Both the position numbers and the translations under genes were made by a program. Shown here one piece after another: positions 16,492 through 58,257 of a stretch of 58,888 bases of DNA (positions are counted from its first letter, which is position 1; every line of letters starts with the position of its first letter). The notes beneath the pieces were generated by a model. The model saw only the letters and a list, made by a program, of their open reading frames with translations, was not told where the DNA came from and did no database searches. This DNA comes from a virus: positions 1 through 58,888 of the IMG/VR virus record IMGVR_UViG_3300044612_001932; one strand, written 5' to 3'.

Positions 16492-16492
16492 A

Positions 16493-18371: not shown

Positions 18372-18376
18372 TGTTG

Positions 18377-18808: not shown

Positions 18809-18826
18809 TTGATATCCTGATAACTA

Positions 18827-19147: not shown

Positions 19148-19174
19148 AATAATTCCTATAATTGTTTGTTATGG

Positions 19175-19182
19175 TATTTATC
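19175..19182 (-). promoter_or_regulatory. Late promoter box GATAAATA
   Basis: GATAAATACC on the minus strand, 28 bases before ATG 19147. Confidence 0.5.
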
Positions 19183-19191
19183 CAATAAGCT

Positions 19192-19222
19192 AACAGCCTA
19201 ATTCCAAAGTAACTAGGCTGTT
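19192..19222 (-). terminator. Hairpin after S74 fibre gene
   Basis: Perfect 9-bp inverted repeat (AACAGCCTA at 19192-19200 and its complement at 19214-19222) with a 13-base loop, 12 bases past the stop of the 1936-aa fibre. No T-run follows, so it may be a weak terminator or an RNA-processing/stability hairpin. Confidence 0.5.
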
Positions 19223-19234
19223 GGGTATTAGGTT

Positions 19235-25070: not shown

Positions 25071-25078
25071 TATTTATC
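25071..25078 (-). promoter_or_regulatory. Late promoter box GATAAATA for S74 fibre
   Basis: GATAAATATA on the minus strand overlapping the stop of the upstream LamG gene, 26 bases before ATG 25045. Confidence 0.5.
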
Positions 25079-40735: not shown

Positions 40736-41923
40736 ATGATTAACAAAGAACCATTTAATAAACTTATCGATAATTTAAAAGAAACTGGAAAGTATAGAGT
40801 TTTCAATGACATACTACGAGAACAAGGTAAATTTCCAAATGCAATCTGGTATGGGCCATATGCCATTAAAAATATTGTCAATTGGTGTAGTAATGATTAT
40901 CTATCACTTGGACAGCATAAAGTAGTACTAGATGCAATGCGAACAGCATTAGATATGACAGGTGCTGGATCCGGTGGTACGAGAAATATATCAGGTACTA
41001 CCCATTATCATGTTGCATTAGAACATGAATTGGCATCATTGCATAAAAAAGAGAGTGCATTATTATTTACTTCGGCTTATGTAGCGAATACGTCAAGTTT
41101 AATAGCATTGGCTAAAATTATCCCAAATATTGAATTTATAAGTGATAGCAAAAACCATAATAGTCTAATAATGGGTATTGTTCATAGTCGTGCATCTAAA
41201 CAAATATTCAAGCATAATGATTTAGTAGAGTTGGAAAATTGTTTGAAGAAATCGGTTCAAAATGAAAATATTCCCTGTATTGTATTTGAAAGCATATACA
41301 GTATGGAAGGTGATATCAGTCCTATTAAACAAATTTGTGATTTAGCTGACAAATATAATGCTATTACATACTGTGATGAAGTTCATGCAGTAGGAGTTAG
41401 AGGATTTACTGGTGCTGGTGAGTTAGAAGAAATGGATTTGCAAGATCGAGTTGATATTGTTAATGGTACTCTTGGCAAAGCATTTGGTGTACAAGGTGGT
41501 TATATCGCAGGGGATTCTATAGTAATTGATGCTATTCGAAGCATCGCGGATGGATTCATCTTTAGTACGTCATTGAGCCCAGTTATTGTCGCTGGAGCAT
41601 TAGCTGCAGTTAAATATTCAAAAGCTCATAATGAATTAAGAGAAAAACACCAAGAACGAGCTAGTAAATTAAAAAAAATGATGAAGGAAGCTGGAATACC
41701 AGTGATGGATTCAGTTACACATATCGTACCTGTTTTGATTGGTGATGCTAAAAGAGCTAGAGAAATTAGTGATAGATTATTAAATGATTATAGTATTTAC
41801 GTACAAGCAATTAATTCTCCAACAGTAGATGTTGGCACTGAACGATTGCGATTTGCACCAACTCCGTTTCATGATGATGGAATGATTGAAGATTTAATCG
41901 ATGCATTAAAATCAATTTTGTAA
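40736..41923 (+). CDS. hemA: 5-aminolevulinate synthase
   Basis: 395 aa, full length. It condenses glycine and succinyl-CoA to 5-aminolevulinate, the first step of the C4 haem pathway (cytosolic, PLP-dependent). Family signatures are intact: WCSNDYLSLGQH (51-61), GAGSGGTRNISGTTHYH (76-92), D214-E-V-H217-AVG and the PLP lysine K248 in GTLGKAFGVQGG. This pattern separates ALAS from the related BioF and Kbl. The gene lies opposite to its late neighbours and lacks a clear Shine-Dalgarno. A stable hairpin follows. Probably acquired from an alphaproteobacterial host as a metabolic gene. Confidence 0.92.
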   Translation: MINKEPFNKLIDNLKETGKYRVFNDILREQGKFPNAIWYGPYAIKNIVNWCSNDYLSLGQHKVVLDAMRTALDMTGAGSGGTRNISGTTHYHVALEHELASLHKKESALLFTSAYVANTSSLIALAKIIPNIEFISDSKNHNSLIMGIVHSRASKQIFKHNDLVELENCLKKSVQNENIPCIVFESIYSMEGDISPIKQICDLADKYNAITYCDEVHAVGVRGFTGAGELEEMDLQDRVDIVNGTLGKAFGVQGGYIAGDSIVIDAIRSIADGFIFSTSLSPVIVAGALAAVKYSKAHNELREKHQERASKLKKMMKEAGIPVMDSVTHIVPVLIGDAKRAREISDRLLNDYSIYVQAINSPTVDVGTERLRFAPTPFHDDGMIEDLIDALKSIL

Positions 41924-48073: not shown

Positions 48074-48102
48074 TTGACATCCACCATAAGAAGGAGTATA
48101 AT
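48074..48102 (+). promoter_or_regulatory. Perfect sigma70 promoter opening the plus-strand cassette
   Basis: TTGACA (48074-48079), 17-base spacer, TATAAT (48097-48102). The predicted start is about 48109, the A of the first ATG, so the first gene would be leaderless. AAGGAG lies inside the spacer and would not be in the mRNA. Confidence 0.8.
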
Positions 48103-48108
48103 TCATAC

Positions 48109-48420
48109 ATGAATATAGCGATATCAAAGTTAGACAAGCGATACACCGGTCATCAATACTTCAAATACAGCATGGTTTTCAGATGGCAACCTTCTTGGCA
48201 ACAAGGTGATCGAACAGCAAAATTCTGTGAAATGCGTCAATGGTGTTGGGAAACATTTGGTCCTAGTTGCTCATTAAATGAATTCATGGAGTTAATGATT
48301 CATAACAAGCCAATAGTCAATGAAAGATGGTGTTGGACTAGTCCATATGAGGGAACTCCTGCTAGAATACTTATAAAAAGTGAAGAAGATAAGAACTGGT
48401 TTGCATTACGGTGGGGCTGA
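48109..48420 (+). CDS. WF-(K/R)W family small protein 1
   Basis: 103 aa. N-terminus MNIAISKLDKRYTGHQYFKY is shared with the family member at 57982. The middle has MRQWCWETFGPSCS and the C-terminus RILIKSEEDKNWFALRWG, the family signature. First gene after the consensus promoter. The TGG GGC codons plus TGATG overlap (1 base) provide the ribosome site and coupling for gene 2. Function unknown. Confidence 0.75.
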   Translation: MNIAISKLDKRYTGHQYFKYSMVFRWQPSWQQGDRTAKFCEMRQWCWETFGPSCSLNEFMELMIHNKPIVNERWCWTSPYEGTPARILIKSEEDKNWFALRWG

Positions 48421-48656
48421 TGAAAAAACAATATAAGATAAGTACTGAATTTTTTTCAGCAAACGTGCATCCATATGCAGTTTATTTAGGGGATGGTTTT
48501 TATGACGAATATCCTGAAATAATTGAATGGGCATCACAACAATTTGGTGGTGATGGTTGGTGTGAGACCCAAAATGAGAGATGGTCATATACATTTTCAT
48601 ATATATGGTTCGCAAATGAGATTGATAGGAATTGGTTTTTATTAAAATGGAGTTAA
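48420..48656 (+). CDS. WF-(K/R)W family small protein 2
   Basis: 78 aa from ATG 48420, sharing its A with the stop of gene 1 (TGATG). Family core: IIEWASQQFGGDGWCETQNE RW and YIWFANEIDRNWFLLKWS. The terminal TGG AGT supplies GGAG, five bases before the next ATG. Function unknown. Confidence 0.75.
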   Translation: MKKQYKISTEFFSANVHPYAVYLGDGFYDEYPEIIEWASQQFGGDGWCETQNERWSYTFSYIWFANEIDRNWFLLKWS

Positions 48657-48657
48657 C

Positions 48658-48864
48658 ATGAGAATTAAAAAAATGCCGTTTGAGCACAATAGTTTTATAT
48701 TGAGCAAAGATAATGGCAATAAAGGATTAGACACGAGAGAATGGAATGAAGTAGCAGAGTGGCTCACTGAACGAAAAATGAAGTTTAATATGCAAGGTGG
48801 CATTCTCACATTGTATAGAGAGATGGATTGCACTTTGTTCACATTAAGATGGATATCAGAATAA
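48658..48864 (+). CDS. WF-(K/R)W family small protein 3
   Basis: 68 aa. Contains EWNEVAEWLTERKMKFNMQG and ends EMDCTLFTLRWISE, a diverged signature with two extra residues and Thr-Leu in place of Trp at the first aromatic position. The ATG is one base after the previous stop. The following gene has its own AAGGAG and here the terminal codons do not provide it. Confidence 0.7.
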   Translation: MRIKKMPFEHNSFILSKDNGNKGLDTREWNEVAEWLTERKMKFNMQGGILTLYREMDCTLFTLRWISE

Positions 48865-48888
48865 TTATTAAAATCCAAGGAGTGGATT

Positions 48889-49245
48889 ATGAAAGAGTTA
48901 TCAAAACAATCAATTTTGTCAATGATACGCAGAGTACAACCAGAATTGATTGCACAAAATATCGTGGGGGTTCAACCAATGACAAGCCAAGCTGGTCAGA
49001 TATTTTCATTGAGAACGCGATATGATACAAGACCATTGCGTCAAGGCGATGATTATACTGATTACCAAGATTATGTATATTGGGTTAGTCCAAGTAGTAA
49101 GATCCATGTTCAAGACTGCGTTAAATGGTGTGAAGAAGTATTCGGAGAAATTCTAGGTGATCGGTGGAAATTAGTACCTGATGATCGATTTATTTTCCGA
49201 AATGCAGCTGACAGAAATTGGTTTATTATAAGATGGGGTGCTTGA
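48889..49245 (+). CDS. WF-(K/R)W family small protein 4
   Basis: 118 aa, the longest member. An N-terminal extension (MKELSKQSILSMIRRVQPEL) precedes the core VKWCEEVFGEILGDRWKLVP, then RFIFRNAADRNWFIIRWGA. Strong AAGGAG ribosome site. Ends TGG GGT GCT TGATG, coupling to gene 5. Function unknown. Confidence 0.75.
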   Translation: MKELSKQSILSMIRRVQPELIAQNIVGVQPMTSQAGQIFSLRTRYDTRPLRQGDDYTDYQDYVYWVSPSSKIHVQDCVKWCEEVFGEILGDRWKLVPDDRFIFRNAADRNWFIIRWGA

Positions 49246-49490
49246 TGAAAAAATTATCGCTTACTAGGGATGTCGCTGTTCGTAAAGCCAGTAAATATTC
49301 GGTTGCACATTCGCCGATGGTTGAATTCACTGGCAATCTTGATCAGGTATTCTCTAAACAAATGGAACTAGTTTATAAGCATTTTGAACAAGAAAATAAA
49401 TGTAAGATTAAGCCGTCATACGATGAGCCAAAATATGCAGAATTTGAGGACGATGCAAATTATACCTGGTTTTTACTGAGATGGTCATGA
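49245..49490 (+). CDS. WF-(K/R)W family small protein 5
   Basis: 81 aa from ATG 49245 (TGATG overlap with gene 4). Opens MKKLSLTRDVAVRKASKYSV; ends AEFEDDANYTWFLLRWS. Lys-rich, no WCxxxFG motif (VYKHFEQENKCKIKPSYDE instead). Overlaps the next gene by 4 bases (ATGA). Confidence 0.7.
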   Translation: MKKLSLTRDVAVRKASKYSVAHSPMVEFTGNLDQVFSKQMELVYKHFEQENKCKIKPSYDEPKYAEFEDDANYTWFLLRWS

Positions 49491-49780
49491 ATAAAATAGC
49501 AGAAAAAACACTTAAAGAATTAGCTGATGACACTAAACAGTATGCAAAAGAGTTAGAAAAACAGCGAACCTTTAGAAATCGAATGATTGTGGTATTACGA
49601 GAAATACGGGATGATTATGCAAATAGTAACAGTAACTGGAGTATCACTTCGTTACTATCACATATTAAAGACACCTATGGGTTGAACATACCAATGCGTG
49701 AAGGTCAAGTTGATGTAGATGCGGCAGTAATAGTAAACGAACACAAATATTTTTTGTTCAAAATAAAATATGGAATATGA
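49487..49780 (+). CDS. Diverged WF-(K/R)W family protein 6
   Basis: 97 aa. A long charged coiled coil (about 5-45) precedes HIKDTYGLNIPMREGQVDVD and the end VNEHKYFLFKIKYGI, where Trp positions are Phe/Tyr. Overlaps both neighbours by ATGA. Assignment to the family rests on position and the aromatic C-terminal pattern. Confidence 0.6.
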   Translation: MNKIAEKTLKELADDTKQYAKELEKQRTFRNRMIVVLREIRDDYANSNSNWSITSLLSHIKDTYGLNIPMREGQVDVDAAVIVNEHKYFLFKIKYGI

Positions 49781-49977
49781 AAACAGTAGATTTAAATCAG
49801 TTTGATCGACCAATGGAAATTTTCACTTGGATGTGTACTCATTGGGGTCCACCTGGATTAAATGATCGATGGGATTTACGAGAATTAACATATCTTGACT
49901 TAACTAATGAGTCAGATTTAACTTTTTTATTATTAAAATGGAATCTTAAAAAACATGATACATGGAATACAAAGTAA
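49777..49977 (+). CDS. WF-(K/R)W family small protein 7
   Basis: 66 aa. MKTVDLNQFDRPMEIFTWMC THWGPPGLNDRWD matches the W-C-x-x-x-F-G...RW core, then NESDLTFLLLKWN followed by an 11-residue extension. ATGA overlap with gene 6. The extension overlaps gene 8 by 23 bases. Confidence 0.7.
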   Translation: MKTVDLNQFDRPMEIFTWMCTHWGPPGLNDRWDLRELTYLDLTNESDLTFLLLKWNLKKHDTWNTK

Positions 49978-50287
49978 TAGCTCACATATATTGTGTCATT
50001 CAAATGGCAGTTCTTCAATAACATCCGGTTCATTACGAATACAAGATGGTCATTTAGAAGCATATACTGGTTATAGTTGGACACCAATAGCATCTGAGAA
50101 TGGGATAGTTGGGTTAACGTCAAACGCTGAACAGGCGTTAGATTGGGCATGTAAAAAAATGATTGAAGAAAAAGAAGAACAAATTTTAATCGAAAAATAT
50201 CCAGCATTAGCTAGTGCCAAAGGTCAATATGATATGATTAAGCAACTATGCAAAGCTGAAGAAGTGCTTGAAAAAAATAATGGGTGA
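49955..50287 (+). CDS. Hypothetical phage protein (not of the WF-KW family)
   Basis: 110 aa. SSSITSGSLRIQDGHLEAYT GYSW looks like a small beta domain and EEKEEQILIEKYPALASAKG QYD a helical tail; I associate this combination with unannotated T4-like phage proteins. The start lies inside gene 7 and no good ribosome site is visible, so the exact start is uncertain. Confidence 0.6.
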   Translation: MIHGIQSNSSHILCHSNGSSSITSGSLRIQDGHLEAYTGYSWTPIASENGIVGLTSNAEQALDWACKKMIEEKEEQILIEKYPALASAKGQYDMIKQLCKAEEVLEKNNG

Positions 50288-50290
50288 TAA

Positions 50291-50635
50291 ATGGGATTTA
50301 TAATTTTAGTACTGTTACAATTTAAACATTGGTACATTGATTTTGTTAATCAAACGAATATTGAAGTTATTAGCAAAGGACATTATGGTGAGTTACCTGG
50401 TATAATGCATAGTTTAAAACATGGCTTTGCCACTGGTCTGATTATTCTATTGATCAACCCATATCTTGCTGCATATATTGGTTTGTTGGATTTTATTCTT
50501 CATTATCATATTGATTGGACTAAACGAAACTTTGGTAATCAAGATATCCAGAATCCTAAATTTTGGCGAGATCTTGGACTTGATCAGATGGCGCATCAAT
50601 TGTGTTATATTGGATATATAGGAATGGTTTTATGA
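50291..50635 (+). CDS. DUF3307-like membrane protein
   Basis: 114 aa. Two to three hydrophobic segments (MGFIILVLLQF; GLIILLINPYLAAYIGLLDF I) with the family His/Asp pattern HSLKHGFATG, LHYHIDWTKRNFG and FWRDLGLDQMAHQLCYIGYI G. DUF3307 proteins are inner-membrane proteins of unknown function in bacteria and phages. The ATGA at its end starts the next gene. Confidence 0.82.
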   Translation: MGFIILVLLQFKHWYIDFVNQTNIEVISKGHYGELPGIMHSLKHGFATGLIILLINPYLAAYIGLLDFILHYHIDWTKRNFGNQDIQNPKFWRDLGLDQMAHQLCYIGYIGMVL

Positions 50636-50886
50636 GACGTTCAGTAGATATCAAACAACATGATTCTTGGACCAAAATTACCATCAATAGATCAGTTCCT
50701 GTTGGAGTATACGATGACATGATTACATGGTGTCGTGAGCAAAATAGTGATTCATTTTTTTATGCTAATCAAGGCAAACCGGTGATCGATCCTAACACTT
50801 TTGAAATTAAATTTTTGCGACATGAATTCTGGTTTGAAAGACCAGAAATGGCAAATTGGTTTAATTTACGTTGGAGTCATTCATGA
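50632..50886 (+). CDS. WF-(K/R)W family small protein 8
   Basis: 84 aa from ATG 50632 (ATGA overlap). Core DDMITWCREQNSDSFFYANQ G and FWFERPEMANWFNLRWSHS. The terminal TGG AGT codons give GGAG seven bases before the next ATG (50883). Function unknown. Confidence 0.75.
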   Translation: MRRSVDIKQHDSWTKITINRSVPVGVYDDMITWCREQNSDSFFYANQGKPVIDPNTFEIKFLRHEFWFERPEMANWFNLRWSHS

Positions 50887-51191
50887 TCAAATTTAATTTA
50901 CAAATAAAAAATCCTTTTTTCAAAAATAGTAATTTTGAGAATTTATGGTTCAAAAGCGGATCATTTAATCCACACAAGCATTGGGAATTACAACTGATGC
51001 ATTATGATTGGAACTTGTTTGAACTTAACCTGGTCATTAGTTGGTTAGGTGAAGATCACGCAGGTCCAAAGTTAGAGATTGGTATTTTAGGATATCAATT
51101 TGCAATATCAGTCTATGATAGTAGACATTGGGATTATTTAAATAATACATGGGAAGTATATGACAACAGAGAAGAAAACGAGAACACCTAA
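50883..51191 (+). CDS. Hypothetical phage protein
   Basis: 102 aa from ATG 50883. NLWFKSGSFNPHKHWELQLM, SWLGEDHAGPKLEIGILGYQ and YDSRHWDYLNNTW form a pattern I associate with a widespread unannotated phage family (DHAG ... Y-D-x-R-H-W). Not of the WF-KW type. Overlaps the next gene by 32 bases. Confidence 0.7.
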   Translation: MIKFNLQIKNPFFKNSNFENLWFKSGSFNPHKHWELQLMHYDWNLFELNLVISWLGEDHAGPKLEIGILGYQFAISVYDSRHWDYLNNTWEVYDNREENENT

Positions 51192-51438
51192 ACCACTAAT
51201 TGAACACCGAGACATTTTGGGACGTTTGTTAAAGATTGGTGATGTTGTAGCAGTCAGTTTACACAATAATATGAAGATAGCAAGAGTCACCAAATTGAAT
51301 CCCAAAATGGTTAAGGTACAATTGTTGAATGTGAAAACTAGTACATGGTATACTGGCTCTCACAATAAGTACCCTGAAGATTTAGTGATAGTTGATGGGC
51401 CATATGTTACAATGTACATTTTAAAAACCAGTGCGTAG
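51160..51438 (+). CDS. Small SH3-like hypothetical protein
   Basis: 92 aa. DILGRLLKIGDVVAVSLHNN and MKIARVTKLNPKMVKVQLL read as two to four strands of an SH3-like barrel. GGGAAG sits just before the ATG. I associate the family with T4-like phages; role unknown. Confidence 0.65.
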   Translation: MTTEKKTRTPKPLIEHRDILGRLLKIGDVVAVSLHNNMKIARVTKLNPKMVKVQLLNVKTSTWYTGSHNKYPEDLVIVDGPYVTMYILKTSA

Positions 51439-51697
51439 AAAAATAACAAATTTAGATGATGTCCACTCATACGAGGCTAATCAACTTGTGGAGTGGCTAA
51501 TTAAAAATGTAGGTCCAGAAGTATTGCAATTGTCCAATACATGGTATCGTGCAGGATATAATTGGGAATTATATTTAAAATCTGTATTTGACGATGATAC
51601 TGGGTATGTGATTAAAGAAAATATATATGTGAAATTTGATGCCAGAATAGTTAAAAGAGCGCAAATGACATGGTTTAAATTAAGGTGGATGGCATGA
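51431..51697 (+). CDS. WF-(K/R)W family small protein 9 (GTG start)
   Basis: 88 aa starting at GTG 51431 inside the end of the SH3-like gene. Core NQLVEWLIKNVGPEVLQLSN TWYRAGYNWELYL, ending YVKFDARIVKRAQMTWFKLR WMA. No clear Shine-Dalgarno; likely coupled to the upstream gene. ATGA overlap with the next gene. Confidence 0.65.
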   Translation: MRRKITNLDDVHSYEANQLVEWLIKNVGPEVLQLSNTWYRAGYNWELYLKSVFDDDTGYVIKENIYVKFDARIVKRAQMTWFKLRWMA

Positions 51698-52017
51698 AAC
51701 CTATATCAATTACAAAAGAACAATGGAAAAAGTTGTTGTTAGAATTACACAACGATTATCCTCCAAGTGTGCTAGCACTCAGAGAAAAAACAAAACGTGT
51801 ACTTGGGTTTACTCCGCGTGAACATACCGAATGGGTTGATAATCCTAAATATGCAGCGGAATATAAGAGTTACCTGGAAGCTGAACAGTCTTCATTCAGT
51901 TCATTATTTCTGTATGAACCTCAAAGAAAAGAGGCAAAAAAGATGATCAAATTAGATTTTTACGATGAAGCTAAACGCACGTTTTTCTTGATTAAATACA
52001 GCGAGTTTTTAAAATGA
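51694..52017 (+). CDS. Diverged WF-(K/R)W family protein 10
   Basis: 107 aa from ATG 51694. Helical, basic N-terminal two thirds (ITKEQWKKLLLELHNDYPPS; REKTKRVLGFTPREH). The end DFYDEAKRTFFLIKYSEFLK is a diverged signature with Phe/Tyr replacing Trp. ATGA overlaps at both ends. Confidence 0.6.
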   Translation: MKPISITKEQWKKLLLELHNDYPPSVLALREKTKRVLGFTPREHTEWVDNPKYAAEYKSYLEAEQSSFSSLFLYEPQRKEAKKMIKLDFYDEAKRTFFLIKYSEFLK

Positions 52018-52160
52018 GAGATTTAATACTAGAACGGATTGCTAACCACTGGGATGAATCCTTGGAAGAAATATTTGACATACGGGTTACTGATGTGTAT
52101 AATTTATCAGATGAAGAATTATTCAACCTTTACAACACAATCTTTGAATTAGGAATATAA
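52014..52160 (+). CDS. Small acidic hypothetical protein (48 aa)
   Basis: ATG 52014 overlaps the previous stop (ATGA); stop TAA 52158-52160. MRDLILERIANHWDESLEEI, then an acidic helix LSDEELFNLYNTIFELG. The S-D-E-E-L pattern is one I have seen in small phage proteins. Continuous with the cassette, so probably real. Function unknown. Confidence 0.65.
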   Translation: MRDLILERIANHWDESLEEIFDIRVTDVYNLSDEELFNLYNTIFELGI

Positions 52161-52161
52161 T

Positions 52162-52374
52162 ATGAAAATGGTACAGTGCGGCTTATTCAAACTTCCAGGT
52201 TTATCTTTTGATAAAGAGGAAATGACAGACGAATTACGTGACGAAATGATTGAATGGTCGGTTAGTTCAAAATGTGGTATTTTTATGACTGATCGTCTTT
52301 GGAGTTTTAAAAACGAAGGACATCGTGATTTCTTTATTTTGAGATGGACTGATCAGATTAATAAAAAAGCTTGA
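52162..52374 (+). CDS. WF-(K/R)W family small protein 11
   Basis: 70 aa. RDEMIEWSVSSKCGIFMTDR, then LWSFKNEGHRDFFILRWTDQ and six extra residues. The ATG follows the previous stop by one base. Its TGA shares an A with the next ATG (TGATG, 52374). Confidence 0.72.
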   Translation: MKMVQCGLFKLPGLSFDKEEMTDELRDEMIEWSVSSKCGIFMTDRLWSFKNEGHRDFFILRWTDQINKKA

Positions 52375-52568
52375 TGAAATACACAATTCTATGTTCATGT
52401 CTATGTGATGACGGGTATGTTTGGTACGCCATTCATACCCTTGATTCAGATATATGGCGGTGGATACGCAATCAATCTTCAGAAAAATGGGTTGATACTG
52501 CTGGTATATCATCATTTGACATCCGAGAAGATTTATTTACGATATTTGCGATACGATGGTCAGCTTAA
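52374..52568 (+). CDS. WF-(K/R)W family small protein 12
   Basis: 64 aa from ATG 52374. HTLDSDIWRWIRNQSSEKWV then IREDLFTIFAIRWSA. It belongs to a subgroup with members 16 and 19 (53129, 54098), all having I-x-x-W-(I/V) followed by (R/N)EEL-(F/Y)T before the terminal strand. Confidence 0.7.
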   Translation: MKYTILCSCLCDDGYVWYAIHTLDSDIWRWIRNQSSEKWVDTAGISSFDIREDLFTIFAIRWSA

Positions 52569-52579
52569 ATTGAGATTTT

Positions 52580-52711
52580 ATGAAAAAGAGTATTAAATTA
52601 AACACGTCGCAATATGAGCGATTGATATCTCTACGGGATCATGAAAAGCCGTCATTGACAATGACTGCCTATGTTAAAGAACGGTTTACTTGGTTTATGT
52701 TACACGTGTGA
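52580..52711 (+). CDS. Truncated WF-(K/R)W family protein 13 (43 aa)
   Basis: ATG 52580, TGA 52709-52711. MKKSIKLNTSQYERLISLRD, then KERFTWFMLHV. The terminal TWFML is retained, but the final Lys-Trp-Gly is replaced by His-Val-stop. This is the shortest member and possibly decaying. Confidence 0.55.
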   Translation: MKKSIKLNTSQYERLISLRDHEKPSLTMTAYVKERFTWFMLHV

Positions 52712-52715
52712 TAAT

Positions 52716-52934
52716 ATGATTACTAAAGCGATATATGAACTGCCAGATAAAGCAAGACATTCAATTCAAGAATTTTATTACGCCAATGCTGATCTCCTCA
52801 CTCACGAATATATGGAATTGTTTCACAAAACATTTAGATGCACTACTGAGGAAATTTCATTTGGTGAATGGACATTGACGTTCAAAGATGAGGATTACAC
52901 CTGGTTTATTTTAAAATGGGGATCTCATGGTTAG
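52716..52934 (+). CDS. WF-(K/R)W family small protein 14
   Basis: 72 aa from ATG 52716. EYMELFHKTFRCTTEEISFG, then EWTLTFKDEDYTWFILKWGS HG. It is a close paralogue of the next gene (FRCT/YRCT, DYTWFILKWG/NYTWFVLKWG), a recent tandem duplication. TGG GGA supplies GGGGA for the next ATG, which overlaps by 8 bases. Confidence 0.75.
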   Translation: MITKAIYELPDKARHSIQEFYYANADLLTHEYMELFHKTFRCTTEEISFGEWTLTFKDEDYTWFILKWGSHG

Positions 52935-53139
52935 ACTTAAATTGAATAATCATACTATATGGCCTATTTTGAATCGATATTTCATAGAACACAAAGGATT
53001 ATCCGATGGTAAGTTCATTGATCAGTTTGAAACTACTTACAGATGTACTGTCATTGAAATTGATGGGTTTTACGAAATCGAATTTACGGATGAAAATTAT
53101 ACATGGTTTGTATTGAAATGGGGATACCATGACCAATAA
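52927..53139 (+). CDS. WF-(K/R)W family small protein 15
   Basis: 70 aa. KFIDQFETTYRCTVIEIDGF, then YEIEFTDENYTWFVLKWGYH DQ. Nearest relative is gene 14 immediately upstream. Overlaps the next gene by 11 bases; TGG GGA again lies five bases before that ATG. Confidence 0.75.
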   Translation: MVRLKLNNHTIWPILNRYFIEHKGLSDGKFIDQFETTYRCTVIEIDGFYEIEFTDENYTWFVLKWGYHDQ

Positions 53140-53368
53140 AATAATCAGACCAATTGTTGCTAGTAATAAGAAATTCAATATGTATGAGATTGAAACCGAT
53201 AAGAATAATAACAAATGGTACTATTTACGCATATATTCAGCAGAAATACGTAGATGGGTTAAAACTTGTAATGTGTCATTATGGAAGAGGACCGAATGCA
53301 TGACTATTGTTGATTATGCTATTAAAGAAGAACTATACACAATGTTTGTGTTGAAATGGGAAGCATAA
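53129..53368 (+). CDS. WF-(K/R)W family small protein 16
   Basis: 79 aa. YLRIYSAEIRRWVKTCNVSL, then VDYAIKEELYTMFVLKWEA. Same subgroup as 52374 and 54098. TAATG overlap (1 base) with the next gene; TGG GAA GCA gives GGGAAG as its ribosome site. Confidence 0.72.
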   Translation: MTNKIIRPIVASNKKFNMYEIETDKNNNKWYYLRIYSAEIRRWVKTCNVSLWKRTECMTIVDYAIKEELYTMFVLKWEA

Positions 53369-53640
53369 TGCATACCCATTATACCCTTTTACAAAAATCA
53401 AAGAATTTTACACTTTTGCATTGTTGTGTTAAAAATAAAGAGTATTGGGCGGTTTCATTAACACCAACTGCAAAGGTTTGGTTATCTGAAAAAGAAATAG
53501 CAGATATTAAAGAGTTTTTTATATGTAATTCGTTAGTTAATTCATTGGGTCCAATGTCATGGAAGGTAGAATCGGAAGAATCAGCTCGGGCAATGTATAA
53601 TTGGGTTAATATAAAATGGTCTGGATATGATGAAAATTGA
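53368..53640 (+). CDS. WF-(K/R)W family small protein 17
   Basis: 90 aa from ATG 53368. Opens MHTHYTLLQKSKNFTLLHCC; a helix (SEKEIADIKEFFICNSLVNS) leads to ESARAMYNWVNIKWSGYDEN. Signature diverged (NWVNIKWS plus five residues). The tail overlaps the next start. Confidence 0.68.
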   Translation: MHTHYTLLQKSKNFTLLHCCVKNKEYWAVSLTPTAKVWLSEKEIADIKEFFICNSLVNSLGPMSWKVESEESARAMYNWVNIKWSGYDEN

Positions 53641-53821
53641 AACACAGCAACTTATAGAGTACCATGGATTACGAATTCGCAATTCACCCGGTGAAAAGTA
53701 TGATTGGTGCGCCAAGAACTTTGGAAATCTTGGTACTAGATGGTTCATTAAAAATAATTATATCTATTTCAAAAATGAAGCAGATTTTTCATGGTATGTA
53801 TTAATGTGGGGGGATAAATGA
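53630..53821 (+). CDS. WF-(K/R)W family small protein 18
   Basis: 63 aa (ATG 53630; ATG 53627 is directly upstream and equally possible). A compact member showing the whole core: YDWCAKNFGNLGTRWFIKNN, then YIYFKNEADFSWYVLMWGDK. TGG GGG GAT yields a GGGGGGA ribosome site overlapping the stop, followed by ATGA. Confidence 0.75.
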   Translation: MKIETQQLIEYHGLRIRNSPGEKYDWCAKNFGNLGTRWFIKNNYIYFKNEADFSWYVLMWGDK

Positions 53822-54087
53822 ATGAAATAATGTGTGTACATGAGTTTATAATATCCAATCTTTCATACATGTACCCAGCCACTATGAACGGTCCAGATTA
53901 TGACCCATATAACGAAATACTCGACAAATTCTATGAATCAGAAATTGGGCGATGGGTGAAACGACGAAGTAAATCAATTAGGGTTTTAGGAGTCGCCGAT
54001 TATGCATTTGATTGCAACAGATACCAAGTAATGGCAGAATTATCGGAAACTGACAAAACTTGGTTTTTATTGAAATGGGGAAAGTAA
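53818..54087 (+). CDS. WF-(K/R)W family small protein 20
   Basis: 89 aa. ESEIGRWVKRRSKSIRVLGV, then VMAELSETDKTWFLLKWGK. The I-x-R-W-V segment links it to the 52374/53129/54098 subgroup. ATGA overlap upstream; GGGGA before the next ATG comes from a short 10-base gap rather than its own codons. Confidence 0.72.
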   Translation: MNEIMCVHEFIISNLSYMYPATMNGPDYDPYNEILDKFYESEIGRWVKRRSKSIRVLGVADYAFDCNRYQVMAELSETDKTWFLLKWGK

Positions 54088-54097
54088 TGGGGATTAT

Positions 54098-54304
54098 ATG
54101 TTCACAGTAGTAGATAAGCATTATAACAGCTTAATGAATGATTATTGGTATCGTATAGACGTCCAGGATCATAAATTGATACACTGGATAGTAAAACAAC
54201 CACAAAGACTATGGTATCATATTGAACATTCTAATCACGGGGTTTCATATACTATCAATGAAGAATTATATACCGTACTTCAACTTACATGGGGAGACCA
54301 ATGA
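54098..54304 (+). CDS. WF-(K/R)W family small protein 19
   Basis: 68 aa. MFTVVDKHYNSLMNDYWYRI, DHKLIHWIVKQPQRLWYHIE, ending NEELYTVLQLTWGDQ. Signature diverged to VLQLTWG. TGG GGA GAC supplies GGGGAG, four bases before the thioesterase ATG (ATGA overlap). Confidence 0.68.
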   Translation: MFTVVDKHYNSLMNDYWYRIDVQDHKLIHWIVKQPQRLWYHIEHSNHGVSYTINEELYTVLQLTWGDQ

Positions 54305-54654
54305 AACAACACAAATTAGTTTTACAAAGCCATTTAAACCATTACGGGTTTCTTTTTGGCGGCGAGATGTTAAAGTGGATCGATACCGTTGGATATGTTG
54401 CAGTCAATGTTGAATTTCCAGGACACGAATTTGTCACAGTTGGATTGAACCAGGTTGTATTTCATAAAAGTATGCCAGCGGGTTCTATCCTTGAATTTGA
54501 CACAAAGTTGATAAAAAAAGGCACGACATCAGCGACTTTCAACATTGATGTATTCTGTTTAAACAGAAATAATGAATTAGTATTCACAACAGAAATCACA
54601 TTTGTAGCAATTGATAAAGACGGTAATAAAACACCAATCAAGGACACACCATGA
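54301..54654 (+). CDS. Acyl-CoA thioesterase (hotdog fold, YciA-like)
   Basis: 117 aa from ATG 54301. SHLNHYGFLFGGEMLKWIDT VGYVAV is the hotdog signature with catalytic-type D28; VTVGLNQVVFHKSMPAGSIL and TSATFNIDVFCLNRNNELVF T complete the fold. It would hydrolyse acyl-CoA; physiological substrate unknown. Located in the small-gene cassette with ATGA overlaps on both sides, so it is co-expressed with the WF-KW proteins. Confidence 0.87.
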   Translation: MKQHKLVLQSHLNHYGFLFGGEMLKWIDTVGYVAVNVEFPGHEFVTVGLNQVVFHKSMPAGSILEFDTKLIKKGTTSATFNIDVFCLNRNNELVFTTEITFVAIDKDGNKTPIKDTP

Positions 54655-54920
54655 CATTTATTCAAAAACATTTACATCACGGTTTTCTAATGCAAGCTTT
54701 TGGCTTCAAATCAGCAGCTGGTTATCCAGTTCTTATCGATTATGAAAAATGCACCGATGACAAGATTGTTGGGTATGTGTGCTTTGACTGTTATAATATG
54801 CCTTTAGAATGGGATATTAACGGTAGACCATTAAAATTACCATTACATCAAGGTCTGGGATTAGTACCAATCCGAAAAGTCGAAAGTTATGAAGTAATCC
54901 CAATTGAAGAACGAGTATAA
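54651..54920 (+). CDS. Hypothetical protein after thioesterase
   Basis: 89 aa. MTFIQKHLHHGFLMQAFGFK, then beta-rich YPVLIDYEKCTDDKIVGYVC FD. No family recognised and no WF-KW ending. ATGA overlap with the thioesterase; it is the last gene before the SD-sequestering hairpin at 54928-54961. Confidence 0.65.
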   Translation: MTFIQKHLHHGFLMQAFGFKSAAGYPVLIDYEKCTDDKIVGYVCFDCYNMPLEWDINGRPLKLPLHQGLGLVPIRKVESYEVIPIEERV

Positions 54921-54927
54921 CGATTGA

Positions 54928-54961
54928 ATTCCTCCTACCAATAAATAATGATAGGAGGAAT
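54928..54961 (+). promoter_or_regulatory. Hairpin sequestering a strong Shine-Dalgarno
   Basis: ATTCCTCCTA (54928-54937) is perfectly complementary to TAGGAGGAAT (54952-54961), a 10-bp stem with a 14-base loop. The right arm contains AGGAGG, six bases before ATG 54965. Folding would hide the ribosome site, so translation could depend on temperature, a ligand, a protein or ribosome coupling. Confidence 0.7.
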
Positions 54962-54964
54962 ATC

Positions 54965-55159
54965 ATGACCGAAGATGAATTCAAAACCAAATACCCAGAT
55001 CATGTCCATTGCATTTGTGTTGAACGAACCGAAGATGATTTAAAGTGGGTGGTTAAATTAGCTACTATTTTAAGACATATTGGGTGTAGAGTATTCAGGG
55101 AATATGCAATACAGAATAATCCTAAATCTTCAATTCCCATTTTATCAATCGAGCCGTAA
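54965..55159 (+). pseudogene. 5' part of a gene interrupted by the TnpB element
   Basis: 64 aa as read: MTEDEFKTKYPDHVHCICVE ... LKWVVKLATILRHIGC ... NPKSSIPILSIEP. The last codons and stop (GAG CCG TAA) come from the left end of the TnpB element. The frame resumes after the element (56441-56509, EQDHANKFNELVEYVKNEKN TR), giving a reconstructed product of about 85 aa. The truncated protein may still be made. Function unknown. Confidence 0.65.
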
Positions 55160-55242
55160 TACCCTGTCTTTTAAGGCGGGGATGAAAGGCGAATTATATA
55201 CCCAAAATTTAATCATGTCAAGCAATTACCACTAAATAACTA

Positions 55243-56424
55243 ATGCAAAACCTGAAATATAAATATCGATTGTACCCATCACAGGAACAGATCCAATTAT
55301 TAAACCAAGTAGTTGGTAACAATCGCTATGTCTGGAATCATTTCTTAAATCAAGAAATGCAACAATACCAGATCGATAACAAGTTCAGGTTTTTCAATAA
55401 AAACAGTGCAGATTTAACCAGTTTGAAAAAAGCTACTGAATGGTTGCAATCTTCACCATCAACGAGCTTACAACAAACTATCCGCTATCTTGATGTGGCA
55501 TTGAAAGCTAGTTTTAAAAAGAATTCTAAAGCTACTAAAGGATTTCCAAAGTTTAAAAAGAAACGAAACTTTTCCGGATCATTTACTCTAGCTATGGTCA
55601 ATTCTGATAGAAACTGTGATTTCAATTCAGGTAAATTTAAAATACCTAATATCGGATGGATTAAATGCCGTTATCATAGGGCATTACCTAGTGATTTCAA
55701 GACATGTCAAATAAAACAAGAAGCCCATAATTGGTTTGTTGTAGTTACATGTACAAAACCAAAATTACCTACGAGAACTACTACTACTAATTCAGTTGGT
55801 ATTGACATCAATTCATCTGAATACGTGTTAAGTAATGGCATTCGTTACCTAATTCCTAAATTTCTTCGTGAAAACCAAGCGAAAATTAAGAAATTACAAC
55901 GAAAGCTATCTCGTAAGAAAAAAGGCAGTCATAATTACTTGAAAGCTCAGTTGAAGTTAGCTAAAATTAATTATCGTGTTAAACTAAAACGATTAGATTA
56001 CTTTCATAAACTTTCTCGTCAGCTTGTCGATGATTATGATGTCATTTCATTAGAAGATTTAAATGTCAAATCAATACAACAATGGAATGGTCATATAATC
56101 AAAGATAACGGATTTGCTATGCTTCGACAGTTTATTGAATATAAGTCTGAATTATACGGTGGTAAAACGGTAATAATTGACCGTTATTACCCGTCTAGTA
56201 AGACTTGTTCAAACTGTGGTAGTATACAAGACATCGAGTTATCAAGTAGAACATATGACTGCAAGTCATGTGGAGAAGTAATAGATCGCGACTTAAATGC
56301 CGCGATTAATATTGATAGGGCAGGAACTGCCCGACTTAATGCCTGTGGAGATCCCCGGTATGATCAATTAGTAATGATTGGTCAATTACTAGGTATCAAT
56401 GAATCAGGAAGCCTCGTCCTTTAG
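55243..56424 (+). CDS. tnpB: TnpB RNA-guided nuclease
   Basis: 393 aa, full length. RuvC-like residues all present: D188 (SVGIDINSSEYVL), E271 (VISLEDLNVKSI), D348/D350 (VIDRDLNAAINI). Zinc finger C322-x2-C325 ... C340-x2-C343. The N-terminal domain starts NLKYKYRLYPSQEQIQLLNQ and includes the HTH R/K-rich region (KGFPKFKKKRNFSGSF). TnpB cleaves DNA next to a TAM, guided by an omegaRNA from the element's right end, which would favour element retention. Catalytically intact on inspection. Confidence 0.93.
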   Translation: MQNLKYKYRLYPSQEQIQLLNQVVGNNRYVWNHFLNQEMQQYQIDNKFRFFNKNSADLTSLKKATEWLQSSPSTSLQQTIRYLDVALKASFKKNSKATKGFPKFKKKRNFSGSFTLAMVNSDRNCDFNSGKFKIPNIGWIKCRYHRALPSDFKTCQIKQEAHNWFVVVTCTKPKLPTRTTTTNSVGIDINSSEYVLSNGIRYLIPKFLRENQAKIKKLQRKLSRKKKGSHNYLKAQLKLAKINYRVKLKRLDYFHKLSRQLVDDYDVISLEDLNVKSIQQWNGHIIKDNGFAMLRQFIEYKSELYGGKTVIIDRYYPSSKTCSNCGSIQDIELSSRTYDCKSCGEVIDRDLNAAINIDRAGTARLNACGDPRYDQLVMIGQLLGINESGSLVL

Positions 56425-56439
56425 GGCGAGTTAGTTCAC
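56400..56439 (+). ncRNA. Candidate omegaRNA 3' region and right-end hairpin
   Basis: The hairpin CTCGTCC/GGGCGAG at 56413-56430 overlaps the last tnpB codons and is followed by TTAGTTCAC. In characterised TnpB elements the omegaRNA scaffold ends at the right end and the guide is the adjoining flank, here beginning near AGAACAAGATC (56440). The 5' end of the RNA is not visible by eye. Confidence 0.5.
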
Positions 56440-56440
56440 A

Positions 56441-56509
56441 GAACAAGATCACGCGAACAAGTTTAACGAACTAGTGGAGTATGTGAAAAATGAAAAAAAT
56501 ACGCGATAA
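56441..56509 (+). pseudogene. 3' remnant of the gene split by the TnpB element
   Basis: 22 codons, EQDHANKFNELVEYVKNEKN TR then TAA. No start codon or ribosome site of its own. Joins in frame to the 54965 gene (ending ...ILSI) if the element is removed. Overlaps the start of the next gene (56490) by 20 bases, a typical spacing for this cassette. Confidence 0.65.
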
Positions 56510-56690
56510 CATTGTAACCATACATTTTACATTCGCAAAAGAAATCATGATCTTTATCAGGGAATTACGTGATATCGGGTTAATTCAAGGCATTGATTTT
56601 GATTTTGAAATAAAATCCTATCCACAAAGAGCATGTTTTTATTTTAAACGCCCTGAACATGCAACTTTCTACCGACTCAAATTGTCATAA
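56490..56690 (+). CDS. Diverged WF-(K/R)W family small protein 21
   Basis: 66 aa. MKKIRDNIVTIHFTFAKEIM, then FDFEIKSYPQRACFYFKRPE HATFYRLKLS. The position and preceding F-K-R-P-E match members such as 50632 (FERPEMANWFNLRWS), but Trp is lost. Notably, the next gene has its own promoter, so no ribosome site is needed from the terminal codons. Confidence 0.7.
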   Translation: MKKIRDNIVTIHFTFAKEIMIFIRELRDIGLIQGIDFDFEIKSYPQRACFYFKRPEHATFYRLKLS

Positions 56691-56719
56691 TTGACATTCT
56701 TAATTCAATTTGATATAAT
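56691..56719 (+). promoter_or_regulatory. Perfect sigma70 promoter
   Basis: TTGACA (56691-56696), 17-base spacer, TATAAT (56714-56719), one base after the stop of the previous gene. Leader with GGAG, then ATG 56746. Confidence 0.85.
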
Positions 56720-56745
56720 GAATTTTTATCATTTTGGAGTTAAGA

Positions 56746-57204
56746 ATGTCAATCACCTTTTATACCAAACAAGGCAGAAGATACAAGCCAGTCAGCGAGT
56801 ATGATGATAAACTACTGAGTTCATACCCAGATGGAGCACATTTGGTTGTTTGCAAGCCTGGTTCTACTAGTACAAAATACAATGTTGACCCAGCTTTTGC
56901 ACCAATGATTGCAGCTGGCAGATATGCTATCGATAAATTAGCCACCGCTATTGTAGAAGGCACTATTGCTAGACCATCTATAACATTAAACACTGAGCAA
57001 CAAGCTGCATGGGATGCTTTTGTCGCAACCATGAAAAAAGAAGATATTTCAATGATATCTTACCCGAGTGCAGCCCAAGCAGCAGAGACCATCATGAAAG
57101 ATCTAGAACAACAAACTGCTCAACTGTTAGAGAACCCAGCTGTGAAAATCAGCTACGACAACTTTCAACTTTTATCAAAACTTACATTGGAGAAACAAAA
57201 ATGA
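56746..57204 (+). CDS. Conserved phage hypothetical protein
   Basis: 152 aa from ATG 56746 (GGAG six bases upstream). MSITFYTKQGRRYKPVSEYD, YPDGAHLVVCKPGSTSTKYN and VDPAFAPMIAAGRYAIDKLA form a pattern I recognise from many phages as an unannotated early protein. The C-terminal half is helical and Ala/Gln-rich. First gene of a second early operon; overlaps the next gene by ATGA. Confidence 0.75.
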   Translation: MSITFYTKQGRRYKPVSEYDDKLLSSYPDGAHLVVCKPGSTSTKYNVDPAFAPMIAAGRYAIDKLATAIVEGTIARPSITLNTEQQAAWDAFVATMKKEDISMISYPSAAQAAETIMKDLEQQTAQLLENPAVKISYDNFQLLSKLTLEKQK

Positions 57205-57548
57205 TGATACTTGCAGTTATTATTGCATTCGTAATTGGGTTACTTATTGGTGGATATATCTTTTTCTGGTTAACTGTGACAGCTTATTCAATGAATAAAC
57301 AAGATGTTATTGATGCTTTAGATAAATCGATCAGTATAGATGATGATGAAAACCCAATCAGTGCAAAACCCACCGCAAATGCAATTGAAATCTTAATTGA
57401 GCAGCATGGTGCAAAATTTATTGGATGGGCAGCTGAATCGGATATGTTTGTTTCTCAGGGTAATACAATTGAAGAAGTTTTAAAATATGCAAGCGAACGA
57501 TTTCCTGGTACTGAATTTACATATCGATTAGCTGAATCTAAAAAATAA
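57201..57548 (+). CDS. Membrane-anchored phage protein A
   Basis: 115 aa from ATG 57201. One N-terminal transmembrane helix (MILAVIIAFVIGLLIGGYIF FW), an acidic linker, and a C-terminal alpha/beta domain (KFIGWAAESDMFVSQGNTIE EVLKYASERFPGTEF). The C-terminal domain matches that of the gene at 58320 (GQGLTIEEALEKAIVRFPDT KF). To my knowledge such TM-plus-small-domain proteins recur in T4-like phages. Function unknown. Confidence 0.75.
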   Translation: MMILAVIIAFVIGLLIGGYIFFWLTVTAYSMNKQDVIDALDKSISIDDDENPISAKPTANAIEILIEQHGAKFIGWAAESDMFVSQGNTIEEVLKYASERFPGTEFTYRLAESKK

Positions 57549-57781
57549 TGCAAGTTCATACAGAAGAATATGTTTATCAGGCTTTACTCTTTCATGATGA
57601 TAGAATAAAGCTTTATGATAGATATGGTGAAGACGAGGTGTTCCAAGATATGTTTGAATGGTGTGATACAACGTTTGGTGAACTAATGTGGTACAATTCG
57701 TATGCAGAGATTGATGATTGTGATATTTTCGCCTTCAGAAAAGAAGAGCACAGGAATTGGTTTGTAATCAAGTGGTCATGA
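57548..57781 (+). CDS. WF-(K/R)W family small protein 22
   Basis: 77 aa. Complete core: MFEWCDTTFGELMWYNSYAE, then IFAFRKEEHRNWFVIKWS. TAATG overlap (1 base) upstream and ATGA overlap with the next gene. Confidence 0.75.
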   Translation: MQVHTEEYVYQALLFHDDRIKLYDRYGEDEVFQDMFEWCDTTFGELMWYNSYAEIDDCDIFAFRKEEHRNWFVIKWS

Positions 57782-57978
57782 CTAAAATTAAAATATCCAA
57801 ACGTAATTATGTTGAAGTCTATCAATGGATGACTAAAAAATTCGGTTATCACAATGACGGTGCAAACTGGATGATTGTTACCTATGCAAAATTAAGTCCA
57901 GAAACAGACGAAACTTATCTTGAAATTTACCAAGGTGATCCAGTAAAAATAACATTAGCCATCATCAGATGGAGTTGA
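57778..57978 (+). CDS. WF-(K/R)W family small protein 23
   Basis: 66 aa from ATG 57778. VYQWMTKKFGYHNDGANWMI V, then DPVKITLAIIRWS. The terminal TGG AGT supplies GGAG nine bases before ATG 57982. Confidence 0.72.
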   Translation: MTKIKISKRNYVEVYQWMTKKFGYHNDGANWMIVTYAKLSPETDETYLEIYQGDPVKITLAIIRWS

Positions 57979-57981
57979 AAA

Positions 57982-58257
57982 ATGAAAGTAATTAAATTAG
58001 ACAAACGATATACAATGTCCAACTTTGGATTCACGCATGCTATCCAATTCGATGACTATAAATCTGCTGTTGGAAAAATAGCAAGATTTTTGTCATCCAA
58101 ATATGGCCCTGAGCCATATACTCATCTACAAAAAATACATCATCCATGGACTTGTGACAGCAAGTATATAAACAAAAAGCTCCGATGTCGGATCTTTGTT
58201 AAAAATGAAACAGTTATCACACTAGCTTTACTGAGTGTAGATCTTACCAATCCGTAA
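57982..58257 (+). CDS. Diverged WF-(K/R)W family small protein 24
   Basis: 91 aa. N-terminus MKVIKLDKRYTMSNFGFTHA is like gene 1 (48109: SKLDKRYTGHQYFKYS). The middle FLSSKYGPEPYTH resembles the WCxxxFG core, and the end RIFVKNETVITLALLSVDL lacks the Trp-Gly/Ser. It is the last gene before a terminator, so no downstream ribosome site is needed. Confidence 0.68.
   Translation: MKVIKLDKRYTMSNFGFTHAIQFDDYKSAVGKIARFLSSKYGPEPYTHLQKIHHPWTCDSKYINKKLRCRIFVKNETVITLALLSVDLTNP

What the first reader, a model, noticed from the sequence alone, without database searches (positions are those of the whole stretch)
48109..58257. Tandem array of about 24 small paralogues ending in a W-F-h-h-(K/R)-W-(G/S) signature
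Seen directly: at least 24 consecutive or near-consecutive small genes (43-118 aa) end in variants of (N/T)-W-F-h-h-(K/R)-W-(G/S). Several also have a core W-C-x-x-x-F-G ... R-W ... (I/F)-x-F-(K/R)-x-E-x-D. Members have diverged well below easy recognition (for example TFYRLKLS, YFLFKIKYG), with one recent tandem duplication (52716/52927). I know no named family or function. Inference: repeated duplication and divergence in an early phage operon fits a battery of host-takeover or anti-defence proteins, each tuned to a different target.
Basis: partly seen in the sequence, partly recalled or inferred. Interest (0 to 1): 0.92.

Follow-up and report, generated by a model that had tools for sequence, protein, structure and literature searches.

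The report
Giant array of small phage proteins
An uncultivated T4-like phage carries an unnamed family of small, probably early proteins, about twenty copies in this window and over a hundred in a sister contig, whose conserved tail also encodes the ribosome-binding site of the next gene; it may be a diversified toolkit for controlling the host, though that has not been tested.

Summary
A profile trained only on other phages finds 18 window ORFs (E at most 5.5e-3; best decoy 0.041), all on the + strand, 48.1-58.0 kb. A contig 99.97% identical over the window's last 11.3 kb holds 122 members, 80 in one run, covering 29% of its 94 kb. The family is common in environmental phage contigs and occurs in one isolate, Sinorhizobium phage Phosso. 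No Pfam, PHROGs or NCBIfam family describes it. Two models agree on a beta-alpha-beta-beta-alpha domain. The C-terminal codons L-R-W-S carry a Shine-Dalgarno sequence for the next gene (terminal Arg is AGG in 97 of 127, against 10% elsewhere). Exact sigma-70 promoters head the array in four phage records. Members show pooled dN/dS of 0.21-0.27, patchy gene-by-gene divergence and one clear chimera. One subfamily, in three lineages, carries a gp23 N-arm piece that probably covers the EF-Tu-binding Gol peptide. Host takeover or counter-defence is the best reading, but it is inference.

The parts
48074..48102 (+). exact sigma-70 promoter TTGACA-N17-TATAAT at the head of the array, 7 nt before the first start codon
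   Evidence: also exact at the array head in L013, L018 and L019
48109..48420 (+). family member (103 aa)
   Evidence: E 2.6e-11; orthologues 43% in G004 and 53% in G006, compared through G002
48420..48656 (+). family member; start overlaps the previous stop (TGATG)
   Evidence: E 5.2e-11
48658..48864 (+). family member; the junction tggagtTAAcATG supplies its Shine-Dalgarno
   Evidence: E 1.0e-6; orthologues 74% in G004 and 50% in G006
48889..49245 (+). family member fused behind a gp23 (major capsid) N-arm fragment, residues 7-54
   Evidence: searches (PF07068 5.6e-13; AF2: domain at residues 61-118), E 9.2e-12
49245..49490 (+). family member; start overlaps the previous stop (TGATG)
   Evidence: E 1.2e-7
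   Evidence: no match
49777..49977 (+). family member
   Evidence: E 6.5e-8; orthologues 47% in G004 and 53% in G006
50602..50886 (+). family member (GTG start, or ATG at 50632)
   Evidence: E 1.3e-8
51431..51697 (+). family member
   Evidence: E 1.3e-4; orthologue 40% in G004
51694..52017 (+). family member; ATGA overlap with the previous stop
   Evidence: E 5.5e-3; orthologue 52% in G004
52075..52103 (+). exact sigma-70 promoter before the second group of members
52162..52374 (+). family member
   Evidence: E 4.8e-6; orthologue 75% in G004
52374..52568 (+). probable member (ends FAIRWSA)
   Evidence: seed profile E 0.0021; independent profile 0.44
52580..52711 (+). 43-aa ORF, doubtful member or fragment
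   Evidence: E 0.044; E 2.3
52671..52934 (+). family member
   Evidence: E 4.8e-5
52927..53139 (+). family member
   Evidence: E 1.8e-3
53129..53368 (+). family member
   Evidence: E 5.3e-3
53368..53640 (+). probable member (ATG at 53368, or 53356)
   Evidence: seed profile E 0.031; one intermediate E 0.036; not found by the independent profile
53627..53821 (+). family member
   Evidence: E 1.4e-13; orthologue 40% in G004
53818..54087 (+). family member; ATGA overlap with the previous stop
   Evidence: E 1.1e-3
54098..54304 (+). possible member
   Evidence: seed profile E 0.82, not separable from chance; resembles a G002 member by eye
56490..56690 (+). family member
   Evidence: E 3.3e-3
56691..56719 (+). 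exact sigma-70 promoter upstream of the last group
57548..57781 (+). family member used for the first structure model
   Evidence: pLDDT 87.1, pTM 0.75; E 1.1e-11; orthologue 44% in G004
57767..57781 (+). example of a double-use junction: codons I-K-W-S-stop, atcAAGTGGtcATGA, with the next ATG inside the stop overlap
57778..57978 (+). family member
   Evidence: E 2.7e-4
57982..58257 (+). probable decayed or diverged member
   Evidence: two intermediates, best E 0.0045

Best explanation
This is an expanded phage gene family of small single-domain proteins (beta-alpha-beta-beta-alpha core, variable N-terminal part), probably made early in infection from a translationally coupled array. Shown by sequence: common descent, a junction that carries the next gene's Shine-Dalgarno sequence, consensus promoters at the array heads, low pooled dN/dS, patchy gene-by-gene divergence and a chimera. 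Inferred: the constant C-terminal helix holds the fold or docks to a common partner while the variable part binds different host or defence proteins, so the array works as a diversified host-takeover and counter-defence toolkit. Near-identical gene ends would let recombination add, lose and reshuffle whole cassettes in frame and with a working translation start. One subfamily carries the gp23 N-arm region that probably holds the EF-Tu-binding Gol peptide, pointing to EF-Tu or a capsid-sensing defence as its target.
For: Common descent: 18 window ORFs found by a profile built without this phage; same fold in the two members modelled. Scale: 122 members in G002 at E below 0.01, 80 in one run, 28.9% of the contig, collinear with the window. 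Early: exact consensus promoters, 7 in the window against 0.07 per shuffled window, one at the array head in the window, L013, L018 and L019. Coupling: of 217 distinct junctions 132 are ATGA overlaps and 20 TAATG/TGATG; terminal Arg is AGG in 97 of 127 against 10% of 840 elsewhere; anti-SD energy median -6.1 against -2.8 shuffled; AGG in 76 of 90 Arg of the ATGA class. Selection: pooled dN/dS 0.27, 0.22 and 0.21. Exchange: in L015 pS is 0.00 in 9 of 18 members and 0.41-0.51 in three; chimera G002 9001-9292. gp23 fragment in three lineages (the third by eye). Gol binds EF-Tu domains II and III and is described as the most conserved region of gp23 (passages of PMC3014915); capsid proteins can trigger defences (passages of PMC9712102).
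Against: No function was tested. No member matches a known takeover or anti-defence protein; of 140 members scanned against PADLOC one matched, at E 0.0085. The fold is generic (best Z 6.5 and 5.2). The gp23-like tail has pLDDT 45-54, and one relative (L018) lacks VQPMT in it. Several G002 members ending LLQQ or LLKQ lack the Shine-Dalgarno, so it is not universal; 101 of 204 junctions have anti-SD energy weaker than -6. Loose promoter-like sites are not enriched in the array region (69 against 64.9); only exact ones are. The promoters are not measured starts, and the one at 48074 would start the transcript almost at the first ATG. Two members have dN/dS near or above 1 in L015 (0.90 and 1.72, on few changes), and non-members show ratios as low (0.20 and 0.34) except 1.09 on few changes in L006.
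Confidence: 0.5

Rival explanations
1. A family of RNA- or ribosome-binding regulators: the small alpha/beta domain resembles EF-G domain III and KH-like folds and could tune translation of host or phage messages.
For: The gp23-Gol fusion also points towards translation.
Against: Foldseek E-values are 0.2 or worse and Z is below 8, which the tool says may be only a common arrangement. The second model's rows are led by a designed protein and secretion-system domains, EF-G being third at Z 5.1. By eye I saw no conserved GXXG loop in the consensus.
Confidence: 0.17
2. Mostly neutral or selfish amplification: near-identical gene ends that also act as ribosome-binding sites make the array prone to grow, and most copies do little.
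For: Many G002 paralogue pairs share only their last 50-66 nt at 80-94% DNA identity (40 of 108 pairs listed); matches per record range from 0 to 42 outside G002 and 122-127 in G002; one 30-aa fragment ORF lies in the G002 run.
Against: Pooled dN/dS of 0.21-0.27; orthologous lineages kept at 40-75% identity between phages; about 27 kb is a large cost for a phage (inference). The search by ORF would not have seen broken copies, so decay is not measured.
Confidence: 0.12
3. Capsid-associated or injected internal proteins; the gp23 N-arm fragment would target a member to the head.
For: gp23 fragment in three lineages; one unpinned member matches small terminase (phrog_426 9.1e-5, PF11985 8.3e-5).
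Against: Consensus sigma-70 promoters at the array heads suggest early expression; only one subfamily is known to carry the fragment; the array is on the strand opposite to the tail genes in the window.
Confidence: 0.08
4. The C-terminal signature is only an embedded ribosome-binding site and the proteins are not related.
For: AGG-TGG with the ATGA overlap is a Shine-Dalgarno at many junctions.
Against: Conservation extends over about 50 residues (F-x-x-E, W-F, upstream W-C) that no ribosome-binding site explains; of 13 members without a nearby start 12 still contain the W/F-x-x-K/R-W-like pattern, the 13th being cut by the end of a stretch; two members have the same predicted fold.
Confidence: 0.02

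Closest known systems
SPO1 host takeover module (26 genes; abstract of PMC6873191 read)
   Same: Cluster of phage genes thought to act on host processes; at least one product (Gp53) is a protein adaptor
   Different: I recall no report that the SPO1 genes form one paralogous family; here one family reaches 122 copies, with embedded ribosome-binding sites at the junctions. Function here is not tested
T4 gp23 Gol region / Lit-EF-Tu exclusion (passages of PMC3014915)
   Same: Array member 48889 and relatives in two other lineages carry a piece matching the gp23 N-arm (residues 92-137 of the phage CGG4-1 gp23), probably covering Gol
   Different: Only a fragment, fused to the array domain; EF-Tu binding not tested; one relative lacks VQPMT
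Coupled overlapping gene pairs with an intragenic Shine-Dalgarno (passages of PMC6728339)
   Same: Overlapping stop and start with a Shine-Dalgarno inside the upstream gene's 3' end
   Different: Here the same junction recurs at scores of paralogous genes and coincides with the conserved protein C-terminus
Sinorhizobium phage Phosso hypothetical proteins (PV764938.1)
   Same: Same family by profile: 26 matches below E 0.01 in the record; of 25 CDS I picked around the matches in two regions, 19 score below 0.01 with the profile (E for 25 sequences)
   Different: C-terminus typically A-M-x-F-K-L-x-W-S rather than W-F-x-L-R-W-S; jumbo phage of 469 kb
EF-G domain III fold (PDB)
   Same: beta-alpha-beta-beta-alpha topology over 65 residues, Z 6.5
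   Different: 12% identity; generic small alpha/beta arrangement

Membership tests
The WF-LRW family defined here | C-terminal domain of about 50 residues matching a profile built from other phages | tested here: met
The WF-LRW family defined here | same predicted fold in diverged members | tested here: met
   two members, both beta-alpha-beta-beta-alpha with pLDDT about 90 in the core (the first with an extra helix); only two were modelled
Any named family in Pfam, PHROGs, NCBIfam or PADLOC | match by several members to the domain itself | tested here: not met
   Pfam and PHROGs: 240 members; NCBIfam: 100; PADLOC: 140; PHROGs also 10 Phosso members. Only gp23 models were hit by more than one member (2)
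Phage host takeover module (SPO1-like) | early transcription of the gene cluster | tested here: inconclusive
   consensus promoters at the heads; no expression data
Phage host takeover module (SPO1-like) | products act on host targets | not testable with these tools
   needs expression and pull-downs
Gp23 major capsid protein (PF07068) | full-length capsid protein | tested here: not met
   member 48889 matches model positions 5-48 of 376 only
Gol peptide | 29-residue gp23 region that binds EF-Tu | not testable with these tools
   fragment aligns to the conserved N-arm; the exact Gol boundaries were not seen in any text read; binding needs an experiment
KH domain | beta-alpha-alpha-beta core with GXXG loop (recalled definition) | tested here: inconclusive
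   first model has an extra helix, second does not; KH rows are weak
EF-G domain III fold | significant structural match | tested here: inconclusive
   Z 6.5 with one model, 5.1 with the other; below 8

The most novel reading that the evidence does not exclude
The arrays are a phage counter-defence repertoire: a constant C-terminal helix docks on a shared partner, variable N-terminal parts recognise different host sensors, and recombination at the shared gene ends (which also carry the translation start signal of the next cassette) generates new binders in frame. Members with pieces of the phage's own trigger proteins, such as the gp23 N-arm, would be decoys or antagonists of defences that sense those proteins.
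Probability: 0.22. Interest if true: 0.96.

Novelty: new variant of a known kind. Interest (0 to 1): 0.86.

Why it matters
I recall no other phage paralogue family of this size, and paper searches found no precedent in an open-licence library. If the members bind host or defence proteins, one array may be a catalogue of scores of inhibitors, and the orthologue groups would tell which targets are widespread. The junction, where a conserved protein end is also the next gene's ribosome-binding site and a repeated DNA end, would explain how such an array can grow without losing expression. The presence of the family in an isolated Sinorhizobium phage makes this testable now.

Tried and rejected
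Only-six-residues-alike hypothesis: rejected. Embedded ribosome-binding site as sole cause of the motif: rejected. KH or EF-G III membership: too weak to claim. A first profile iteration collapsed through a script error on my side (wrong coordinate columns) and was discarded and redone. The idea that terminal Ser would be AGT for a Shine-Dalgarno was wrong for G002: terminal Ser is TCA in 70 of 82 there, and the signal sits in AGG-TGG. The late-promoter argument failed: TATAAATA is rarer than chance in the whole window (8 against 13.6), so its absence before members says nothing. The member with the small-terminase match was not pinned down; it was not among the ten tested. Bacterial genomes: one pattern scan gave 51 stretches and no confirmed relative, weak evidence of absence. 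The megablast of the array region against named phages gave no match. tblastn against 50,697 named phage records was run with ten family queries: eight members or a consensus and two Phosso members. The first eight gave no significant match to the domain (one search matched capsid proteins through the gp23 piece); the Phosso hit (E 1) was at first taken for chance and proved real by profile. So absence by tblastn means little for this family, and only 7 named records were searched by profile, 6 of them without a match. Nine of 149 loci found by motif patterns had no member, and one of 23 further records none.
Full report
What is there. The window is a 58.9 kb virus record from a T4-like phage: NrdB, an NrdA gene in two parts and a tail-tip protein are on the - strand, with a glutaredoxin-like gene seen by eye. 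NrdB is closest, at 55-60% identity, to Xanthomonas phage X1 and Stenotrophomonas phages (12 best rows seen). From 48.1 kb a + strand run of overlapping small genes begins.

Checking the array. A profile of 12 members ranked eight further array genes above chance. I then collected relatives by single-protein, alignment and pattern scans of viral contigs and refined the profile (trained on window members too). The fair test is a profile from 300 of 829 members of other phages, the window's close relatives being left out. Of 769 six-frame segments in the window it finds 18 at E at most 5.5e-3, all in the array; the best reversed decoy is 0.041 and the next real segment 0.051. The conserved unit runs roughly W-C...F-G ... 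R-W ... I-x-F-x-x-E-x-D-x-x-W-F-x-L-R-W-S.

Fold. AlphaFold2 models of 57548 (100-row alignment, pLDDT 87, pTM 0.75) and of 48889 (53 rows, overall pLDDT 70; residues 61-118 at about 85-94) both give beta-alpha-beta-beta-alpha; the first has an extra helix. PDB neighbours are weak: EF-G domain III at Z 6.5 for one model, Z at most 5.2 for the other. The best viral-library matches are unnamed proteins of 55-85 residues from uncultured phages (best E 7e-3).

Extent. Contig G002 is 99.97% identical to the window over 11,341 bases and collinear; the window's right end falls at G002 65,742. It carries 122 members at E below 0.01 after removal of two duplicates made by overlapping stretches (best decoy 0.028), covering 27,245 of 94,375 bases, with 80 in one run at 2,084-20,959. 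The tool's own search counted 127. If the window's phage has the same order, that run lies about 45-64 kb beyond the window. The other 17 records hold 1-42 matches, 22 of 23 records have matches, up to 38 in a 240 kb contig. These records were chosen because a locus matched a motif or relative, so the tallies are not prevalences.

Known or not. Among 100 members only gp23 models were hit by more than one (two members) in Pfam and PHROGs, and NCBIfam gave one single-member hit, to RimP at 1.1e-3; 140 further members gave only single-member hits in PHROGs, Pfam and PADLOC. tblastn with eight queries against 50,697 named phages gave nothing significant for the domain. A profile search of seven named phages found the family in one, Sinorhizobium phage Phosso: 26 matches below E 0.01; the other six had none at E 1. 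Of 25 Phosso CDS that I picked around the matches, 19 score below 0.01; those 19 are annotated hypothetical protein.

Junctions. In the G002 run genes typically end TTG AGG TGG TCA TGA, and the ATG inside that overlap starts the next gene. Over 217 distinct junctions, 132 are ATGA overlaps, 20 TAATG/TGATG, 52 have another ATG close by and 13 none. Terminal Arg is AGG in 97 of 127, against 10% of 840 Arg codons elsewhere in members (Fisher p 2e-55, with the background taken as 84 of 840). Anti-Shine-Dalgarno energy is -6 or lower in 103 of 204, against 25 of 204 shuffled. Several window junctions use variants such as AAATGGAGTTAA or TGGGG. Of 13 members without a nearby start 12 keep the motif pattern, and some G002 members ending LLQQ or LLKQ lack the signal. 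So the protein constraint is real and the ribosome-binding site looks like an added use. Coupling itself was not measured.

Expression. Exact TTGACA-N(16-18)-TATAAT occurs 7 times in the window, four on the + strand of which three lie in the array region, against 0.07 expected from shuffling single bases. One copy lies at the array head, and the same is seen in L013, L018 and L019. Looser promoter-like sites are not enriched. The late motif TATAAATA is rarer than chance everywhere in the window, so it cannot be used either way. Early expression is likely, not shown.

Evolution. Eight window lineages have reciprocal best matches between G004 and G002 at 40-75% identity. Pooled dN/dS of members is 0.27 (L006), 0.22 (L015) and 0.21 (L013, pS 0.70, near saturation); L018 is saturated. 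Neighbouring non-members give 0.20 (L015), 0.34 (L013), 0.23 (L018) and 1.09 (L006, on nine changes). In L015 nine of 18 members are identical at synonymous sites while three differ at 0.41-0.51, which fits gene-by-gene allele exchange. G002 9001-9292 is a chimera: bases 1-90 are 93% identical to one paralogue, the rest 82-83% to two others. Many pairs share only their last 50-66 bases at 80-94% identity, a ready substrate for recombination (inference).

The gp23 subfamily. Member 48889 has, at residues 7-54, a piece of the T4-type major capsid protein (PF07068 5.6e-13), matching residues 92-137 of the phage CGG4-1 protein. The same piece precedes the domain in L019/L131, in L018/L091 (there without VQPMT) and, seen by eye only, in L177, three lineages in all. 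The review passages I read say that 29 residues of gp23 define Gol, that 100 residues from its first quarter bind EF-Tu more stably, that bound Gol lets Lit cut EF-Tu, and that Gol is the most conserved region of gp23 (PMC3014915). That the captured piece covers Gol is my inference, since I did not see the exact boundaries. Capsid proteins are known defence triggers (PMC9712102 passages).

Mechanism. The best reading is a battery of early binders, each lineage with its own target, made from a coupled message and diversified by cassette exchange. It would work like the SPO1 host takeover module (abstract of PMC6873191) but cannot be filed as one: activity on host targets was not tested and SPO1 genes are, as far as I recall, not one family. 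Rivals are RNA-binding regulators, neutral amplification and virion proteins.

Print. Searches listed no paper describing such an array, and 115 found none on Phosso; the library holds open-licence papers only.

Noticed in passing
window 40736-41923 (+): Phage-encoded 5-aminolevulinate synthase (TIGR01821, 563 bits, cut-off 338.55); 414 viral stretches encode relatives, best 80 kept. Phage AlaS from aquatic environments is already published (PMC11480375, passages).
   Followed up: partly
window 6565-9892 (-): NrdA gene in two ORFs (N-terminal/ATP-cone part and barrel part) with a group I intron type endonuclease-like gene (7535-8311, TIGR01453 below its cut-off) between them.
   Followed up: no
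window 55243-56424 (+): TnpB-type RNA-guided nuclease gene (NF040570, 283 bits) inside the array region; no TnpA or guide RNA was looked for.
   Followed up: no
window, 7 sites; other phages likewise: Many exact consensus sigma-70 promoters (7 against 0.07 expected), also frequent in relatives.
   Followed up: partly
window 48074-48111: The array-head promoter puts the expected start of transcription almost at the first ATG, and AAGGAG lies inside the promoter spacer; the first gene may be leaderless or also transcribed from upstream.
   Followed up: no
L044 17112-18450 (G002 37.1-38.5 kb) and L045 11258-11494: A subgroup of members ends FLLQQ or FLLKQ instead of LRWS (six of the seven here) and, in those read, no Shine-Dalgarno is seen at the junction.
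   Followed up: no
A5 members: One member, not identified, matches small terminase (phrog_426 9.1e-5), and one, perhaps the same, matches Mu Gp27 (PF11985 8.3e-5): perhaps a second captured virion-gene fragment.
   Followed up: partly
window 25077-28779 (-): Three consecutive proteins of 387-430 aa look by eye like tandem paralogues; the one tested matches a phage head-spike fibre domain.
   Followed up: no
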